Shown here: positions 30,356-43,968 of the stretch, piece after piece
Position numbering within the stretch: the stretch's first letter is position 1
Layout of the letters: each line of letters starts with the position of its first letter
Source of the DNA: Dioszegia crocea
Taxonomy: Eukaryota > Basidiomycota > Tremellomycetes > Tremellales > Bulleribasidiaceae
Reading direction: 5' to 3'
Length of the DNA stretch: 64,000 nt
Assembly: GCA_001600615.1 (NCBI GenBank)
Contig: BCKK01000007.1
Span: forward strand, 960,431 to 1,024,430
Position numbers and translations under genes: made by a program
The notes under the pieces: model-generated
The model's database searches: none
The model's input: the letters and a program-made list of their open reading frames with translations, nothing else
What the model was told of the DNA's origin: nothing

Positions 30356-33300
30356 ATGAGCGACAATCACGATTCTCAGTCTGGCGCGGTCCACCCTGGT
30401 CCCCCAGCGGCATCATCTACCGGTGGCTCGACTACAAACCCGCCAGTCACACAACGACCTATAGGCGTCGGTAGTATGCCTTCACACCCTAATATTGCAT
30501 TGGGGAATGTGTCTATACATGTCAATCATCCTCAGCCTCAATCCACCTCTGCGTCCAACAACCCACCAGCTGGCGAAGATGACGGATCCGTCATTGATCC
30601 AATACTCTTAGCGGCCGATCAAGCCGTAGCTGCTGCAGCCGCGGCGGCAGTGCAAGAAGCACAAGAGATGGGGTTGGATGACTTTGATGAAGAGGGATTC
30701 GACCCTGCAACACTGGCCAATCTCGCTGCGCTCTCACGAATCGCGCACGAGGAGGACGATGCGGGGTTTGGTAATGAAGAGGGGGAAGAGGAAGGGGACG
30801 AGGATCAGCTGAGACCGTCTGGATCTGGACAGCGGGATCAGGGCCAGGATACAAGTGCGACAGGGACAGGCGAAGGCGAAGATCCGGTCGAAATCTCGGG
30901 AGATCAGGTCAATGCGCTTGTTGAAGATTTGAATGAGGGCAAGGGTAAGGGGAAGCGGAAACGGCGCTCAAAAGCGAAAGGGGTATCAAGAAGTGGAAGT
31001 ATGGCGACGGATAGGGGAAGCGGGGCGGATCAAGATGAGCCGGATTCCGGAGAGGATGATGAAGAAGATGACGATTCGGATATGGAAGGGAAGGATGATA
31101 AGGATGGGAAGTACTATTATGATAGTAATGGGAAGTTGAAGAGGAAGCGGAATCGGACTGTTTTGTGAGTTTATCCTTCTACATTGTTCTGGAAATAGAG
31201 CTGACAAAGTATCAGGAGTTGTACTGGTGCGTCACTTACATTCTTGCGTTTCGTACCATATGCTGATGCGTGCCTCCAGAATGTCATCGTAGAGTGAGTC
31301 GTATTCCCGCTCATATGCAGTAGAAAGATAGCTGACGTGAGTAGAAACGTAAGTCTCGCAGAACCAGCCGTGCTCTATTCGTACTAATGTCCGATCACTG
31401 ATTGAGGTAGAACATGTGAGTCAGAATCATCCTCTACTATCTTTGGGGGGAGTAGGCTGACGCTGTATTAGTGTGACCGCAATATCCCATGTAAACGATG
31501 GTGAGTCTTACTTACGCCCCTATATTCCTGATCCTGACCCAGCAGTATCCGGCGCGGAGTAGCAAGCATGTGCAAGATGGAAGCGCCTATAATGCCCGAG
31601 CGCAAGAAGCGAAAGTAGGTACCTCTTTACGGAAGCCCATCTCATCTTGGCTTTGGTACTGTGGTCTCTCGCAGGTTCTTCGACTAATACACCAGACCTT
31701 TGGAAGAATCACCTATAAATTACGAACTCGGCATGCGAGTCTCAGCCCTCGAAACGCTCATAAGAGCCGGGACGAGTATGGACGCCGATTCGGCAAGTTC
31801 AGCAGCTATGGAGACTATCCTCCAAGCGACCCGAGCGGCCGGGAAGGGGAATGTAGAAGCGGGTAATGCGCTCGCTAGTCTATCGTCAGCTGCAGGGATG
31901 GATTTGAGCGAGTTGGAAAGTGGTGAAAGGGCCGGTTTGTTGATGGAGGTTTTACAGCAGGTGAGTGTTGGTCTGGCGGATGGCTCCTTGTGACAAAATA
32001 AAAGGGGAAGAATAGAGGCTGATGAAGAAGTTATCAGACGCTAGTATGCCCCCTCGGATCCAGGTTGACTCGGAGGCTCCAGTGGTTAATACGAATGACC
32101 CATGGGCTAACATACCCCGAGCACGAACGAATCTGTACGTCCGCTTGAAGTCCCTATTTGACTGTTGGACGCAAAGCTGACTATGATAGATTATCAAACC
32201 AACAGATCAACCCAGTATACCAATCCGACGCCGAGCACCCTCGCCTCGATTTAACACTACACGGTTTCCGAGAAGATAACGGGCGAATCTTTATTCCTCC
32301 GACTGTACGATATGTCGAAAAGATTATGCGGGCGGATAAAGAGAGTGTGCTCGCTCGGGATGCATTACCTATCCAGGGTGATGAGAAGTTTTTAAGGGAA
32401 GGGAGTAAGTTGGTTTATGGTGGTGAGAGCAATGTTTGGCGTAAGAGTTTGGTAAGTCTTGGGCTTCTTCATCAAGATAGTGGGGAACAGAGACTAATGC
32501 CAGTAGATCTCTGCCGTTCAGACACATACGATAACTGGAGCTCTCCGCGTGGCCGCTTCTTTCCTCTCTCGCTTTCTTACCAGTCCTCCTGGTCCTTCTC
32601 TGGGTTCACAGGCTGTTTATTGCCCTTCGCCAACGACTGTGGAGGATGAGACGGCGCTGCGGGAATCGGGACTTGAAGTGCACAGATTCAGGTTTTTGGA
32701 TCCGCAGACGGGTGTCGTGGATTGGGGAGGTGTCAGAGAAGATCTACAGGTGAGGCTTTGTGGTCCAAACCCAATAATCAGTAGCTGATGAAATAGGAAG
32801 CAAAGCCTAAATCGATCGTGTTGCTATATGTCAGTGGAACTCTACCGACAGGGATAGAACTTAATGCTTCTCAATGGAGAGTCATGACGACGTTATTATC
32901 GGTCAGTTTACTCCTTCGGGTTAAGGCAGGATATAATTGACAAGAGAAGGAACGACAACTATTACCAATCCTCGTTCTGCCCTCTCAGGGTCTTTCAACT
33001 GGGGATGTAGATCGAGATGCGAATCCTGTAAAGTTTATGGTTCATGAAGGATTACCAGTCGTGGTTGTTCAGTCTTTCGATGCGGTAAGTTCATGTCTCG
33101 CCAGAGCCGCCAGTGTGAGCTGAACCCACAGGCAATGGGGATATACGCAGATTCTCCTTCGATAGTATCTGTCGCTACCCAAAGTGTCGAAACCAAAGAC
33201 CGGGTAGATTCACAATTACGTTCAGTGGCCAGGATGTATCATTCACATCCTGCGCCATGGGGTGCTCAGATTGTTTATTCGATTCTGTCCGATGCGAAGT

Positions 33301-34017
33301 TGTATCCTGCTTGGTGAGTTGTTTGTCTCTTACGGTTCTCTACTAGCAAGGAAGCTCACGATACTCTAGGTTAAATGAGCTGAAGGCCATGTCGGGTCGA
33401 CTACGATCTGTGCGCGAAAAGCTATTCGATGTATTGACCAATAAACTCAAAACGCCGGGTACATGGACGCATATCAAGCGATCATCAGGAATGCAATGGT
33501 GAGTCTTGACAACTGAAGTATGGGCAACAGCTGATCAGGCAGTACATCCCTCTTACCTTCCAGCCAAGTAACCTCTCTAGCCCTCTCGCGCAATATCCAC
33601 ATCAACCCAGACGGTTCCTTCTCCCTCGGCGCGCTAAATGCGCCCAAAATCGAAATACTCGCTAGGGGTATCGATCAAGTAGTACGCGATTCGATCCGAG
33701 AGCAAGAAGAAGCGCAGGCACAGGCGATTGCGATGGAATTAGCACTGGTTGCGGCTAGAGAGGCAGCAGCGAAGGAAGAGGCTGAAGCTGCTGAGCGGGC
33801 TGCGAGGGATGCGGAAGAGAAGGCCAGAGAGGAAGATACGCTTTTGATGGAGGCGAGTATTGCGGATGCGATGGAACAGCAACGACGAGAAGAAGAGGAG
33901 GAGAAGAGAAGGGAAGAGGAAAGGGTTGAGATGGATGAGGCTATTAGGAAGGCGGCTGAACGGGCTGAGATGCAGAGGAAGGCAGAGGCGATTTTGGCTA
34001 GTATTGGCGCGTTGTAG
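30356..34017 (+). CDS. Zn2Cys6 DNA-binding domain fused to a degenerate aspartate aminotransferase domain (947 aa)
   Basis: Sixteen exons: 30356-31164, 31216-31226, 31280-31293, 31345-31348, 31411-31415, 31472-31500, 31546-31614, 31696-31960, 32031-32134, 32190-32451, 32507-32749, 32797-32901, 32947-33084, 33132-33313, 33370-33498 and 33543-34017. Residues 1-270 are acidic and disordered with a basic KGKRKRRSK patch. The zinc cluster has Cys at 272, 275, 282, 288, 291 and 300 (CX2CX6CX5CX2CX8C). Residues ~420-830 follow the AAT fold: DPWANIPRA, GFREDNGRIFIPPTVR, LPIQGDEKFL, THTITGALRVAASFL, YCPSPTTVEDE, LPTGIELNASQW, SQGLSTGDVDRDA, MYHSHPAPWGAQIV. The schiff-base Lys position reads SFDAAMG. 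Residues ~835-947 form a long Glu/Arg/Ala helix. Probably a nuclear regulator using a dead enzyme fold for ligand binding or dimerisation; this is inference. A split into two genes is unlikely, since only ~60 nt with clean splice signals separate the halves. Confidence 0.82.
31345..31415 (+). other. Two micro-exons (4 nt and 5 nt) inside the zinc cluster
   Basis: Exon 4 is 31345-31348 (AAAC) and exon 5 is 31411-31415 (AACAT). Joined after AGA they give Lys-Gln-His, which sets the CX6C spacing exactly. Alternative acceptors (for example joining GTAGAACAT) give seven residues between cysteines. Flanking introns are 51, 62 and 56 nt with GTGAGT or GTAAGT donors. Confidence 0.7.
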
Positions 34018-34157: not shown

Positions 34158-36029
34158 CTATAGCTCCATACGCATCATGACACCCTTAGTCCGAGTGACC
34201 TGGTCGTACCCAAGCGTACTCAGACTGATACCCCGGCCTGAATCCTTCCATCCGCTCCATGGCAAAGAAGGCTCCAAAGCGTCTGCACGGTTCAGATAGA
34301 CGGTGCCGCATTCGAGTTCTTCGGCGAAGTGGTTGAAGGCCGTGATGGAGTTTTGGGATTTGGGATCGGTCCATACTGAGGCGGTCTGAGAAGTTAGCTA
34401 TGAGGTCTGAGGCTACGCATGGGAAGAGTGGGGAGTATGGTGAGCCCGGAACGGAAGGTTGTGAAGAGGGTAAGGGATATCGAGAGATGAGATGGCGCGA
34501 GATTCGTTTGACGAGAGTACAAGTGGTGAAAAAATTGGGAATGGTCTTCGATGCTGGGATCTCAGAACTCACCAAACCGTACGGCGAGTCATTCATCAAA
34601 CTCAATGCCTCTTCGTCGCTCTCAACCTTCATAATACCGACCACTGGGCCGAAAGTCTCCTCCATCATCACTTCCATTTCTGTCGAATCAGTTTAGCCCA
34701 TATACATAAGATGAGAGCGTGGCAACTGACTGTGATCAACATTGACAAGGACGGTAGGCCCCAGAAGCGCCGTGCCCTCTTTCGCTTCAGGGAAGGAAGA
34801 TTCATCAAGTGCTGCTGTCGCACCAGCCGAGACTAGGAAAGGGATCAGCTGTATTTCCGAGACCAATTGCCGCGCGGAATGAAGCTCACCAGCATCCTTA
34901 ATCTGCTTCCTTATCCTTGCGGCACTGGCGACACTAACCACCGGTCCCAACGTAGTCTCCTTCTTACTTGGGTCACCCAATTTGTAGGCACTGGCAAGCT
35001 CCACAAACTTCTTGACAAACTCATCATATACCGCCGCATGGCAATATATCCTCTCGATGGAACAACAGCTCTGTCCTGAATTGAACATGGCCCCATCCAC
35101 CAGATTCTCCGCCGTATACCCAACATCGGCATCCTCACGGACGTACGCTGGGTCTTTCCCGCCCAATTCTAGCCCAACACCCTTGAAACCCTGTCCGCCC
35201 GATGCGGCCCGCGCGACGGCCCGTCCACCCGCTACTGATCCAGTGAATGAGATGAAGTCGATTCGGGTGTCGGTGGCGAGGTGTGATAGGGTCAGATCTT
35301 GGCTTAGGTGGATTGCCTGAAGAACTTTATCGGGCAGACCGGCAGAGGCGAAGGTTTCGAGGAACCGTTCGGCCGATGAAGGGGTTTGAGGCGCGGGTTT
35401 GAGGAGGACCGAATTGCCAGAGAGGATAGCGGGGAGGACAGAGTTGACTGTGCACATGTGAGGGAAGTTCCAGGGTGTCATTACGCTAGACGTATGAGCT
35501 TTGGGCCTGGCAGTACGTGGCAGCGGAATGAGCTTACGCAATGACTCCAACGGGCTGCTTGACGAGTGTCAACTTCATGGCGTCTGAGCTGGACTCGGTC
35601 TGGGGGATGGGTGCAAGACAATCCTTGGCAATCTTGATCAGGTGTCTTGCGCGGTAGAGAGTACCGTTGACCTCACCCTTGGAACTGCCGATAGGTCTGA
35701 GAGTCAGCTTAGTCAGATCCGACTATCGGCAACGACGAGCTCACCTGCCCATCTGGGTCGAGATGTCCTCCGCGATCAAATCGCCGATCTTTTCATACTC
35801 TATCTAGTCCATTAGCTATTTGAGATCTCTTACTCTTCAAGACTTAGCTCACCAGCCACTTCTCCGCAATCGCAATCCGATCCTCAAGCGGGACTTTCTT
35901 CCATGATTTCTGAGCCTTGACAGCTTCGGCAATGACGTTATCGAGCTGTTTTTCCGACAAAAGCGGGCGAGTACAGACAGGCTCTTGCGTGTATGGGGAG
36001 ATGGTAGTTTGGATGTTGACGTTGGACAT
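34158..36029 (-). CDS. NAD(P)-dependent aldehyde dehydrogenase (475 aa)
   Basis: Exons 36029-35853, 35803-35745, 35696-35538, 35485-34890, 34832-34731, 34679-34573 and 34385-34158 (1428 nt). Domain order is typical ALDH: MTPWNFPHMCTVNSVLPAIL, the nucleotide-site FTGSVAGGRAVA, the catalytic Glu in LELGGKDPAYV and the catalytic Cys in FNSGQSCCSIERIY. ETFGPVVGIMKV and LPWSGWKDSGRG follow. Normal length for a soluble ALDH. There is no N-terminal targeting signal, so it is probably cytosolic. It oxidises an aldehyde to the acid; the substrate cannot be told, though the SSADH/ALDH9-like class fits. One intron is 187 nt. Divergent from NHP2 with 228 nt between starts. Confidence 0.93.
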
Positions 36030-40500: not shown

Positions 40501-40910
40501 CTCCCCCCTTCCTGTCTTCCGCTCCCCATATTTTCTATTCCTCACTTCCTTCTGCGCTGTCTCCCATCCACCTCTATGCTGTCCTTTGACTAGCTCGCAC
40601 TCCCCTGTACCCGCTTCCCATACACTCCCTGTAACTTTTCCACATATCTACCATTCCCGATCTGCGCATCTTTGGGATATAGGATCAATCGCTGACATGT
40701 AATCAGCTGGAGAACGAGTTGGACGAGCTGAAGCCAGCCGCCGAAGCGGCCATTCGTGACTTATCCACCGCACCTCCCCCAAAGAAGGCAGGCCCTAAAC
40801 AACTTCGCCCCCTGGAAAGCGCGCTATACCAAAAAATGGACGAAATCGGCCAACTCATGCGTAAAATGGACGGGCTGCGGATGGAGGTGGAGAACGCAGC
40901 TTCTGGCTAG
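37506..40910 (+). CDS. NUP82: Nucleoporin Nup82/Nup88 (812 aa)
   Basis: Exons 37506-37751, 37798-38072, 38117-38867, 39060-39298, 39348-40071 and 40707-40910 (2439 nt). The N-terminal half is a beta-propeller: LTLNPTGRLLAIIGRTQLVI, ISKVLWHPLGQNGESLWVL, EYDIQSPHDPTQTF. After it comes DTFYIQHSTGVDAISVQGM, a signature of Nup88. The C-terminal third is coiled coil (IGDLISNLQSRIEAIRTASQ, VERHLDLQTREFQRQIQLL, ALYQKMDEIGQLMRKMDGL). It sits on the cytoplasmic face of the pore with the Nup159/Nup62 partners and helps mRNA export. The intron at 38868-39059 (192 nt) might hide an extra exon. The last intron is 635 nt and repetitive. Confidence 0.87.
40072..40706 (+). repeat. 635-nt pyrimidine-repeat intron of NUP82
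   Basis: Donor GTAAGT at 40072, branch GCTGAC near 40691 and acceptor AATCAG at 40706. About 40215-40410 is nearly pure C/T with CTTCTT runs and a 20-nt unit (CTTCCTTCTTCCTCTGCTGT) repeated in tandem near 40300-40330. More than ten times the usual intron length here. Confidence 0.8.
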
Positions 40911-41095
40911 GCGTCCTTCTGTATCGCAGTCGACTAGCCTCTGTTCTATCAAATCAGATATATACTATGATTCTCCTTACGTTATTTGGCGTTTCATGTT
41001 GTGAGCCTAATAAAGATGGTCGACGGGTCAAGACGCGTCTATCAGCAGATCTGTCCATTAAGTACAGCTGCTACAGGTCTGACAAGACCAGCGTG

Positions 41096-43968
41096 ATGAT
41101 TGCCGAAGTTCTGCTCGCTCTGTCAGGCCATCAATCGGCCTTCTTCGCCCCGAATCCAGCCACCACATCATTTTCTGTTCCCCCATCACTCGCCGAGTAC
41201 CTTCATCCCGGCGAAGTGGCATCCCTAAACCACCTCGGAATACTGGCATACCGCTACAAGCATATCCGATCATGGGCACTTGACATACAGACCCGATCAC
41301 GGACAGCCGTCCTCCACGAAACCTCCTCTAAAAAGGGCAAAGAACGCGCCGAGCCCCTCGCGTCGAGCGACGCGCCGTCAAACTTCGATGGCGCGTATGC
41401 TTCTACTCTAGCTGCGGGTATCCTGGAGGTGTTGAAGGAGTATGAGCTACAGATAGTAGAGACGGAAGCGAAGATTTTGGCTATCGATCCGAGCTTGGTG
41501 CAGGATGGGAAGAATCAAGTCCCGCTCTCAAGCCTCGTTGCTTCTTTCGATGCCTGGCAGCCTGTCTTCGCTTCCCTCTCCCTGCTCGTCGACACACTCT
41601 CCCATCCTCTCGATGCTGCCGGAACCCCCTGGACTTCCGGACAACTCATACATCGCCTCACTACCCTCTGCGACACAGGCAACCCCCGCCTTCGATCTAT
41701 CTACCTCACCCTCCTACATGGCTTACGAGTACTTTTCCTTACCCATCTCGTCGCTTTCCTCCTCTTTGGCCTAGCCCCAGCCTCTTCCTCCTCCGCCTCC
41801 CCTTCTATCGGTATCGATGTCGGTCCCGATCCCCTTAGCCCACAACATCGTGTATATCGGCTCAACGCAGACCTCTTCCCACCGGCCATAGGCGGCCGGA
41901 CGAGGGAGAGTGTGCTCTACGTGGGAAGGGTCGCGGCGACGCTGAGGAGGGAGGGCCGGGGGCTGCCAGTCGGAGTCATAGCAAGATTGAGGGAGGAGCT
42001 TATGGCCGTGGAAGATCTGGATGATGGGGGAGGATTAGGCAACGCTGTATCGAGGGCCAGAGCGGAAGTAGGAGAGTGAGTTGGTTCCTCTGTTTGTGGG
42101 TACGTCTAACGAGTGAGCGAGAAACTGACCATACCAGGTGGCTATGGAAGAATGTCTTGACAGGTCAACAAGTATCGGAAGCTTTTGAGACGTTGTAAGC
42201 TGCCTCACCTCATCTGCGCTGTACAAGCTGACAGGTCCAGCGGCGACTACTTCCTCCTCCGCAAAGCCGACTTTGCTCTTTCCCTCATCCGCGAAGTCCA
42301 CCAGCTCTCACATACCAAACTCCTCACTGCCAACCCCCGCTCCTCTACATCCGTTATCCGCGATGCCGACCTCACCACGGCTCTCCTCCGTGCCAGCCCG
42401 GGCACTTCAGCCGAGACGGACGCGAATCTCGAGAAGCTCAGCTTTAAGCTAGAGCATGGACCGCTCAGGCCCATCATGCCTTCCGTCAGCACGCGAAAAA
42501 GACCTAAGCTCCTCCCCAGCGAGGCCGTAACGGCGAGCGCTACGAGGGATCTTTTCAGCTCTGCGATCCTTGGCGCGCCTGTCGAACTCCGATACAAGAT
42601 CGGATGGCCGCTTGACCTCTTCATGACCCCCTCTTCCATCTCCACCTACTCTGACATCCACGCCTACCTCTTTGCACTCAGAGATACGCACGTGCGTGTG
42701 ACCGATGCCTGGGCGAGGTTGTCCACGGCATATCGACTCCGGCAAAAACGAGGCGGAATCCGGACCGGAAACGACCTCGATGAACCCAGTCGGAAACTGA
42801 GCAAAATCACATGGAGTACAGCTCGCACCATGCTCTTCTTCCTCGATCAGCTTCTGGGACACTTCACGACTGATATCATCGACGTGCAGCACCGACGCCT
42901 CATTGATGATCTGGACATAGTAGGGTTAAATGAGGAGAGAAGGGCAGATGGAGATCTGGCGAGGTCGAGGTCGAACACTGGCTTTTCGCCCGCTGCTTCT
43001 ATCCGGGAAAGAAGGCAGAAATCCTCCATATCTCGATTCGACTCTCTTAAGTCGATGGGCGGATCGGTCAGGGGTGATGGGACGGTATCGCCCACGAGCG
43101 ATGTGGATGCTGGGTCTGTTCGCTCAAAGCTTGCACCTCCAATTCCCCGGCGTACCCAAGCTACTTTTCTAGATTTCCTGTCTCTAAGGTGAGCTAACAA
43201 CTTTCGCATTGTGTCGATTCACCAAAAGCTGACTCCCAGGCAAATGCATTCCCGTCACCTCTCCTTCCTGCGTGATGGCCTCCTTCTGTCAGATCCCAAC
43301 ATCGCGACCCTCATCCGAGACATTATGGACACGTGCAAGCGCTTCGCTGGACTTTTGGATAGATGGGGCGGCGATGGGGTTCCTGAAGCGCTATCAAGCG
43401 AGGCGGACGAGGTCACTCATCCGCGGCTTGTTCAGATGTCGGAAATCGCACGGGTTAGTTATGCAGATCACGCATACGTCGTAGTATTTGGTAAGTGGCA
43501 CAGCTGACCTTTTCTAGACTTTCAATGAACAGCTCTCAGACTTCTTCCGCGCCCTTCTCGACACCCAAAACCCCCAATTGGCGAAAGACGACGCCTCATC
43601 AAACGGTACATCCGGAACATCCTTCTCCAGGACCGCACGGACAGTTCAGATGTCTCGTCTGATGTCTAGGCAGCAGAGCGGGTTTTCGGTCGTTTCTGCC
43701 CGTCGGGCGAATAATGGGAGTGGGAAGGCCAGGTCAAAGGCGGATATTGAGAAGGAAGATAAGGGGATGGAGGCTGAGGCGGCGATGAGCCGGCATATCG
43801 AGCAGCGTAAGTTATGTGCCAAACGGATGAGTTTCTCCCAGCGAAGAATCTAACTGACATACAATAGTTCTACTGCGCCTTGATTTCAATGGGATTCTGA
43901 CTGGTTGGATGTCGGCTGAGGATGAGGGTACGAAGAGCAGGAATGTGTTGGGCGAGGGCGGATTGTGA
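41096..43968 (+). CDS. GCP4: Gamma-tubulin complex component 4 (864 aa)
   Basis: Exons 41096-42075, 42138-42194, 42235-43188, 43240-43453, 43518-43806 and 43868-43968 (2595 nt). The N-terminus MIAEVLLALSGHQSAFF is the hallmark start of GCP4. GRIP1 continues to about residue 330, and the GRIP2 half carries GDYFLLRKADFALSLIREV, YKIGWPLDLFMTPSSI, WSTARTMLFFLDQLLGHF and HSRHLSFLRDGLLL. It works at the spindle pole or centrosome in the gamma-tubulin ring complex. A Ser-rich disordered insertion (about residues 580-650) sits between the GRIP2 helices. The first ATG before the conserved motif is used; the upstream open frame is ignored. Confidence 0.92.

What the first reader, a model, noticed from the sequence alone, without database searches (positions are those of the whole stretch)
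30356..34017. A Zn2Cys6 DNA-binding domain fused to an aspartate-aminotransferase fold
One spliced gene encodes an acidic N-terminus, a textbook fungal Zn2Cys6 cluster (residues 272-300), a full-length AAT-like domain (~420-830) and a charged helix. Zn2Cys6 factors normally carry the 'fungal_trans' middle domain instead. The halves are joined by an intron (about 31961-32030) with GTGAGT and GCTGAT signals. There is no room for a promoter. The domains are seen in the sequence; a metabolite-sensing regulator is inference.
Basis: partly seen in the sequence, partly recalled or inferred. Interest (0 to 1): 0.9.

Follow-up and report, generated by a model that had tools for sequence, protein, structure and literature searches.

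The report
Fungal regulator with dead aminotransferase domain
A yeast-like fungus and its relatives carry a probable gene-control protein in which a DNA-binding zinc cluster is joined to an amino-acid-metabolism enzyme fold that has lost its catalytic site, so a former enzyme seems to have become part of a gene switch.

Summary
Window 30356-34017 (+) encodes one 16-exon, 946-residue protein: acidic N-terminus, canonical Zn2Cys6 cluster (C272-C300), conserved linker, complete aspartate-aminotransferase (AAT) fold (about 426-840) and a long charged helix. The fusion is not a gene-model artefact: 33 relatives examined, from ten named genera (two orders of Tremellomycetes checked), share the AAT part, and 24 of the 33 models join it to all or the end of the same zinc cluster. 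The PLP lysine is A, T or S in 34 of 34 sequences, and the equivalents of Y70, G108, W140, H143, N194, D222, R266 and R386 are gone too, while true AATs of the same genome keep them. Four of six comparable introns sit at the same position and phase as in one of those AAT genes, so it came from an AAT gene with its introns. A PLP-sensing mechanism like bacterial MocR/GabR is therefore unlikely. I favour a dimeric transcription factor using the dead fold as a dimerisation and partner-binding body. The cluster is spelled partly by exons of 4 and 5 bases, which probably explains why many relatives' annotations break or mislabel the gene. Function is untested.

The parts
30356..34017 (+). whole coding region, 16 exons: 30356-31164, 31216-31226, 31280-31293, 31345-31348, 31411-31415, 31472-31500, 31546-31614, 31696-31960, 32031-32134, 32190-32451, 32507-32749, 32797-32901, 32950-33084, 33132-33313, 33370-33498, 33543-34017; 946 aa
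   Evidence: splice choices checked against relatives
30686..30742 (+). conserved N-terminal motif DEEGFDPATLANLAALSRI (residues 111-129) inside the acidic region (net charge -29 over residues 75-190); candidate activation motif
   Evidence: position; core of the motif in 24 of 33 family proteins and in P0030 and P0034; alignment A1; helix in the model of P0025, pLDDT about 50-69; role inferred
31220..31573 (+). Zn2Cys6 cluster C272-C300, interrupted by five introns (exons of 11, 14, 4, 5 and 29 bases plus the start of exon 7)
31345..31348 (+). 4-base exon coding for Lys279 and one base of the next codon
   Evidence: consistent with KQH in 5 named relatives
31411..31415 (+). 5-base exon; with the 4-base exon it spells KQH; skipping both removes 9 bases in frame
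   Evidence: 7 relatives' models lack exactly KQH and an eighth (P0016) has the same shortened spacing with other residues
31696..32099 (+). conserved linker (residues about 315-425), short leucine-rich helix then small helical stretch
   Evidence: helices in the P0025 model at low confidence
32100..33696 (+). pseudo-aspartate-aminotransferase domain (residues 426-840); PLP lysine replaced by Ala685
32452..32506 (+). intron 10, same alignment column and phase as introns in own-genome AATs C1a and C1b
32750..32796 (+). intron 11, same column and phase as in own-genome AAT C1a
33085..33131 (+). intron 13, directly after the former PLP-lysine codon, same column and phase as in AATs C1a and C1b
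33314..33369 (+). intron 14, same column and phase as in AATs C1a and C1b
33697..34014 (+). charged C-terminal helix (residues 841-946) with conserved stretches around EDTLLME and QAEAILA
   Evidence: alignment A1; one long helix in both models of relatives, confidence falling to about 52-59 at the end

Best explanation
This is a Tremellomycete transcription factor built from a Zn2Cys6 DNA-binding domain and a duplicated mitochondrial-type aspartate aminotransferase that lost its cofactor site. Shown by sequence: the fusion, its conservation, the loss of the catalytic site, the shared introns and the retained fold. Inferred: the protein binds DNA as a dimer; the AAT fold, whose parent enzymes are homodimers and whose N-terminal arm is still recognisable, replaces the usual fungal middle domain as the dimerisation body; the acidic N-terminus with its conserved FDPATLANLAALSRI motif activates transcription; PLP is not used; and the signal comes in through a protein partner docked on the dead fold or on the long C-terminal helix.
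For: Both domains above Pfam cut-offs in one frame. Fusion in relatives: 24 of 33 family proteins join all or the end of the cluster to the AAT part (Tremellales and Trichosporonales). Catalytic lysine absent in 34 of 34, with eight further sites lost in every readable row, while 5 of 5 true AATs keep these nine. Of 115 positions invariant in the true AATs that cover them, 29 are kept by at most one of 34 family rows, whereas the fold is kept: AAT core of the P0001 model mostly at pLDDT 80-95 with dips to about 61-74, target-normalised TM 0.85-0.90 to the 50 aminotransferase chains listed. The family is one clade (100/100) on a stem of 1.68, with mostly short branches inside, as expected for a change of function followed by renewed constraint. 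Intron sharing with AAT C1a, 4 of 6 compared, P about 1e-7 under random placement. N-terminal arm W-x-x-(V/I/L)P aligns with the start of Sugiyamaella AAT2, P0047.
Against: No expression, DNA-binding or dimer data. Dimerisation was not modelled: only monomers can be predicted here. The zinc cluster (about 48-59) and linker (about 42-70) are modelled with low confidence. No targets or partners known. T109, R292 and P195 kept in every readable row and S107 as S or T could hint at a surviving ligand site. Eight of 33 family models have no cluster because they begin after it or with unrelated residues, and one more (P0012) skips it; I read these as annotation failures but could not see their DNA.
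Confidence: 0.55

Rival explanations
1. Ligand-sensing variant: the rebuilt AAT pocket binds a metabolite other than PLP (for example a dicarboxylate or a hydrophobic molecule) and gates DNA binding or activation, as proposed for the AROM-derived repressors QutR and GaaX.
For: R292 and T109 kept in 34 of 34; 12 columns fixed in true AATs have settled on another fixed residue in the family; precedent of enzyme-derived fungal regulators (passages of PMC10512348 and PMC6528562).
Against: Nine sites lost in every readable row, replaced mostly by small or hydrophobic residues (H143 by an acid), which also fits a filled-in structural pocket. No ligand known.
Confidence: 0.25
2. MocR/GabR-like regulator: PLP or a PLP-amino-acid adduct bound in the AAT domain is the signal.
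For: Same overall plan, DNA-binding domain plus AAT fold, as bacterial MocR factors (PMC5320631, start of abstract and passages).
Against: Schiff-base lysine, D222, W140, N194 and R266 missing in every readable family row.
Confidence: 0.03
3. The dead subunit forms mixed dimers with the catalytic AATs of the same cell and so couples amino-nitrogen flux to transcription.
For: Derived from a mitochondrial-type AAT by best structure hits and shared introns; AAT fold and N-terminal arm retained.
Against: About 23-32% identity to solved aminotransferases makes a compatible interface unlikely; the partners may be in another compartment.
Confidence: 0.08
4. Two adjacent genes or a gene-model artefact, not a fusion.
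For: Some relatives are recorded as shorter AAT-like proteins (P0001, P0024, P0029, P0037 and others) or as N-terminal halves (P0030, P0034).
Against: 24 of 33 family models join the end of the cluster to the AAT part; the linker on both sides of intron 8 is conserved; the N-terminal halves P0030 and P0034 stop at the short exons, in or just before the cluster.
Confidence: 0.03
5. Constitutive scaffold only: the AAT fold gives dimerisation and stability, with no signal input at all.
For: Pocket sites replaced mostly by small or hydrophobic residues; fold retained.
Against: Does not explain strong fixation of stretches such as DAQxLRFMVHEGLPVV and of parts of the C-terminal helix.
Confidence: 0.06

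Closest known systems
Fungal Zn2Cys6 (Gal4-type) transcription factors
   Same: Canonical six-cysteine cluster with basic flanks and a following leucine-rich helix.
   Different: No fungal_trans or other middle-homology domain found; an AAT fold takes its place.
Class I (mitochondrial-type) aspartate aminotransferase, GOT2/AAT1
   Same: Whole fold, N-terminal arm, intron positions, and 46 of 382 compared columns fixed in the true AATs and at 90% or more in the family.
   Different: Nine cofactor and substrate sites lost in every readable row of 34; fused to a DNA-binding domain; long extra C-terminal helix.
Bacterial MocR/GabR regulators (GntR DNA-binding domain plus aminotransferase-like sensory domain)
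   Same: Plan: DNA-binding domain followed by an AAT-fold domain (PMC5320631, start of abstract and passages).
   Different: Different DNA-binding family, eukaryotic AAT origin, no PLP site: the fusion looks convergent.
QutR, GaaX and TanX: AROM-derived regulators in ascomycetes thought to be catalytically inactive
   Same: A metabolic enzyme turned into a probably inactive part of a Zn2Cys6 control system (passages of PMC10512348 and PMC6528562).
   Different: There the enzyme-derived part is a separate repressor made of shikimate-pathway domains; here it is an AAT inside the zinc-cluster protein itself.

Membership tests
Zn2Cys6 transcription factors | CX2CX6CX5-12CX2CX6-9C cluster (pattern recalled) | tested here: met
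   C272-C300, CX2CX6CX5CX2CX8C; Pfam Zn_clus 26.7 bits, cut-off 21
Zn2Cys6 transcription factors | fungal_trans / middle homology domain (common, not obligatory) | tested here: not met
   Only Zn_clus, Aminotran_1_2 and PV-1 (21.1 bits, below its cut-off of 30.1) at E up to 1
Zn2Cys6 transcription factors | sequence-specific DNA binding and effect on transcription | not testable with these tools
   no experiment available
Class I aspartate aminotransferases | AAT fold (fold type I) | tested here: met
   Model of relative P0001; the 50 Foldseek matches listed are aspartate, aromatic or broad-specificity aminotransferases, TM 0.85-0.90 by target. The window protein itself was not modelled
Class I aspartate aminotransferases | PLP Schiff-base lysine (K258) | tested here: not met
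   A 28, T 4, S 2 of 34; K in 5 of 5 true AATs
Class I aspartate aminotransferases | D222, W140, N194, R266 for PLP; R386 for substrate (roles recalled) | tested here: not met
   absent in 34 of 34 (N194 readable in 33)
Class I aspartate aminotransferases | other site residues T109, R292, P195, S107 | tested here: met
   T109 and R292 in 34 of 34, P195 in 33 of 33, S107 S 31 and T 3
MocR/GabR regulators | GntR-type DNA-binding domain at the N-terminus | tested here: not met
   no GntR match; Zn_clus only
MocR/GabR regulators | PLP-binding aminotransferase-like domain | tested here: not met
   by residues; PLP binding itself not assayed
AROM-derived repressors (QutR/GaaX type) | shikimate kinase, dehydroquinase and shikimate dehydrogenase domains | tested here: not met
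   no such Pfam match at E up to 1

The most novel reading that the evidence does not exclude
A eukaryotic, independently evolved counterpart of MocR in which the aminotransferase was first stripped of PLP and then reused as a regulatory body, and whose DNA-binding activity is switched by splicing: exons of 4 and 5 bases spell the KQH of the zinc cluster, and skipping both is in frame but shortens CX6C to CX3C, giving a probably non-binding isoform. Seven relatives' gene models show exactly that skipped form and an eighth the same spacing, which may be annotation error or a real isoform.
Probability: 0.12. Interest if true: 0.88.

Novelty: new variant of a known kind. Interest (0 to 1): 0.68.

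Why it matters
It shows a metabolic enzyme turned pseudoenzyme and built into a probable fungal transcription factor in place of the usual middle domain, converging on the plan of bacterial MocR factors. It is shared by relatives from two orders of Tremellomycetes, the class that includes Cryptococcus neoformans. The C. neoformans record seen here (P0024) begins, by alignment, two residues after the last zinc-cluster cysteine, so it reads as an aminotransferase; domain-based transcription-factor lists could therefore have missed it (inferred, not checked). It also shows how tiny exons inside a DNA-binding domain can hide genes from annotation.

Tried and rejected
Rejected: MocR-like PLP sensing; active moonlighting aminotransferase (same calls); two genes; retroposed AAT copy (introns shared). 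P0031 (unnamed source) shares cluster, basic tail and helix but shows no AAT domain; it may be a pre-fusion form or a truncated model, and I could not tell. The third homology search, with the AAT part (47 hits), showed no pseudo-AAT that clearly lies outside this family, but only 7996 candidates sharing exact words were scored, so absence elsewhere is not shown; the same kind of limit applies. The place of the family among eukaryotic AATs is not resolved by the tree, and four long end branches besides P0038 are flagged there.

Rows not used: of the 47 hits, the residue table holds P0047 and, together, 33 family members. P0039-P0046 (eight short proteins from unnamed sources) were left out of it; a later check showed the PLP-lysine stretch in four of the eight, without lysine, and did not find it in the other four. 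P0048-P0054 were left out of the table. P0028 was dropped from the tree for a missing stretch. The six rows labelled 'bact' are other aminotransferases, of which only P0053 has a named organism. Intron 9 (in the N-terminal arm) could not be compared because the own-genome AATs were spliced only from further in.

Literature: ten searches in open-licence PubMed Central; none of the listings showed a paper on a Zn2Cys6-aminotransferase fusion protein, but two listings were only the top 15 of 104,602 and of 548 papers and one the top 15 of 16, I saw only listings, starts of abstracts and found passages, and subscription papers are not held. Recalled, from no call: AAT residue numbering and roles, AAT homodimers and the role of the N-terminal arm, Gal4-type binding as dimers.
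Full report
What is there. The window lies in a 20.6-Mb, 17-contig genome. The gene at 30356-34017 (+) was rebuilt exon by exon. All 15 introns are GT-AG and 44-81 bases long, and 13 of 15 have a branch-site-like motif near the acceptor.

Domains. Pfam reports Zn_clus (26.7 bits, cut-off 21), Aminotran_1_2 (57.3 bits, cut-off 19.7), a sub-threshold PV-1 match on the C-terminal helix, and no fungal_trans (first model). Against solved structures the C-terminal half matches mitochondrial AATs best (1ama, E 3.4e-50, residues 446-826; cytosolic ones follow from about 4e-43). An AlphaFold model of the closest relative P0001 (recorded as Dioszegia hungarica 'aspartate aminotransferase-P2'; 80% identity over 388 columns of the AAT part) has an AAT core mostly at pLDDT 80-95 with dips to about 61-74, and one helix of about 120 residues at the C-terminus. 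The 50 Foldseek matches listed are aspartate, aromatic or broad-specificity aminotransferases with target-normalised TM 0.85-0.90. In a model of the longer relative P0025 the core is again the confident part; the zinc cluster (about 48-59) and linker (about 42-70) are weak, and the N-terminus is low except for two helices, one at the conserved FDPATLANLAALSRI motif and one at residues 73-102. The window protein itself was not modelled.

Conservation. Searches returned 29, 28 and 47 proteins. I examined 33 as family members; the named ones come from ten genera: Dioszegia, Kwoniella, Saitozyma, Vanrija, Naematelia, Cutaneotrichosporon, Cryptococcus, Kockovaella, Cryptotrichosporon and Papiliotrema. 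Two of these were looked up and lie in Tremellales and Trichosporonales, class Tremellomycetes. Of the 33, six have the full cluster (P0002, P0003, P0025, P0026, P0028 and the unnamed, long-branched P0038); eight have it nine bases' worth shorter (seven lack exactly KQH, P0016 has other residues there); ten have a garbled cluster but keep its end (KRG[VI]PxMC); P0012 skips it; and eight begin after it or with unrelated residues. Two further proteins, P0030 and P0034, end at the short exons. P0009 and P0011 read RRKRT, as expected if a relative's 4-base exon were read on into its intron (inferred from protein only).

A dead enzyme. Fifteen sites were compared in 34 rows, the window protein and 33 relatives. 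Nine are lost in every readable row: K258 (A 28, T 4, S 2), R266 (S 34), R386 (C 28, S 6), Y70, G108, W140, H143, D222, and N194 (33 readable). Three are kept in every readable row, T109, R292 and P195 (33 readable); S107 is S or T; Y225 is F 21, Y 11, S 2; S255 is S in 24. Five true AATs, three of them from this genome, keep all fifteen except one S107G. So most of the cofactor site, not just the lysine, was dismantled before the sampled family diversified. Of 115 positions invariant in the true AATs that cover them, 29 are kept by at most one family row, while 46 of 382 compared columns are fixed in the true AATs and at 90% or more in the family.

Origin. This genome has two AAT genes on contig C1 whose best solved relatives are mitochondrial AATs and a more divergent one on C10. 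Of the six introns of the pseudo-AAT that can be compared (10-15), introns 10, 11, 13 and 14 fall at the same alignment column and phase as introns of AAT C1a, three of these also in C1b, and intron 15 matches one in C10; intron 12 matches none. Random placement gives four or more matches to C1a with P about 1.3e-7 (introns are not truly random, so this is a guide). The 33 family rows in the tree are one clade at 100/100 with a stem of 1.68 changes per column, against mostly 0.01-0.4 for branches inside and 0.99 for P0038. The family's place among eukaryotic AATs is not resolved. P0031 carries the same cluster, basic tail and helix (77 aligned columns, hhalign probability 99.3) without an AAT domain, which could be what the AAT was fused to.

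How it probably works. The cluster with basic flanks should bind DNA. AATs are homodimers (recalled), the fold is kept, and the arm that in AATs embraces the partner subunit (recalled) is recognisable (W-x-x-(V/I/L)P), so the domain likely makes the factor dimeric in place of the fungal middle domain. The acidic N-terminus (net -29 over residues 75-190) with the motif DPATLANLAALS looks like an activation domain (role inferred). The lost sites now hold mostly small or hydrophobic residues, which points to structure or to a new ligand, not to PLP. That the signal comes through a protein partner is my choice, not shown.

Comparison with the literature. MocR factors join a GntR domain to an aminotransferase-like sensory domain that binds PLP, and GabR forms head-to-tail dimers (PMC5320631, start of abstract and passages). 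QutR, GaaX and TanX resemble parts of AROM and are thought to have lost catalysis yet to bind an inducer (PMC10512348 and PMC6528562, passages). The C. neoformans transcription-factor study chose genes by DNA-binding-domain prediction and reports 78 with a Zn2-Cys6 domain, 40 of them also with a fungal-specific domain (PMC4391232, passages); whether this gene is among them could not be checked. A survey of fungal factors lists zinc clusters combined with other DNA-binding domains, and the listing counts no occurrence of aminotransferase in it (PMC5415576, listing and passages). The ten literature searches listed no paper on this fusion; precomputed Pfam domains and UniRef names of several members show that the architecture is already visible in databases.

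Neighbours. Downstream on the minus strand is an aldehyde dehydrogenase, upstream on the minus strand a fragment resembling MoCF_biosynth below the cut-off, further downstream a gamma-tubulin complex component; they give no functional hint.

Recounting changed these statements: the sites kept or variable are now all named, seven instead of eight relatives lack exactly KQH, TM and confidence ranges were widened, and the short proteins P0039-P0046 were looked at.

Noticed in passing
window 31216-31500: Exons of 11, 14, 4, 5 and 29 bases inside the zinc-cluster coding region; relatives' annotations often skip the 4- and 5-base ones (9 bases, in frame) or break there.
   Followed up: partly
window 33697-34014: C-terminal long charged helix with strongly conserved stretches around EDTLLME and QAEAILA, possibly a partner-binding rod.
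   Followed up: partly
G000:C1 1068908-1088551 (loci L004, L006): Two mitochondrial-type aspartate aminotransferase genes about 17-18 kb apart on one contig, both with all tested catalytic residues.
   Followed up: partly
L001 (G000:C10 826794-830639): A third, divergent aminotransferase with S107G but otherwise complete tested AAT residues and only three introns in the part spliced.
   Followed up: partly
window 34693-35568 (-): Aldehyde dehydrogenase gene facing the fusion gene tail to tail.
   Followed up: partly
window 40865-42079 (+): Gamma-tubulin complex component N-terminal domain.
   Followed up: no
protein P0031 (unnamed source): A 1056-residue protein with the same zinc cluster, basic tail and helix but no aminotransferase domain, perhaps the pre-fusion type.
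   Followed up: partly
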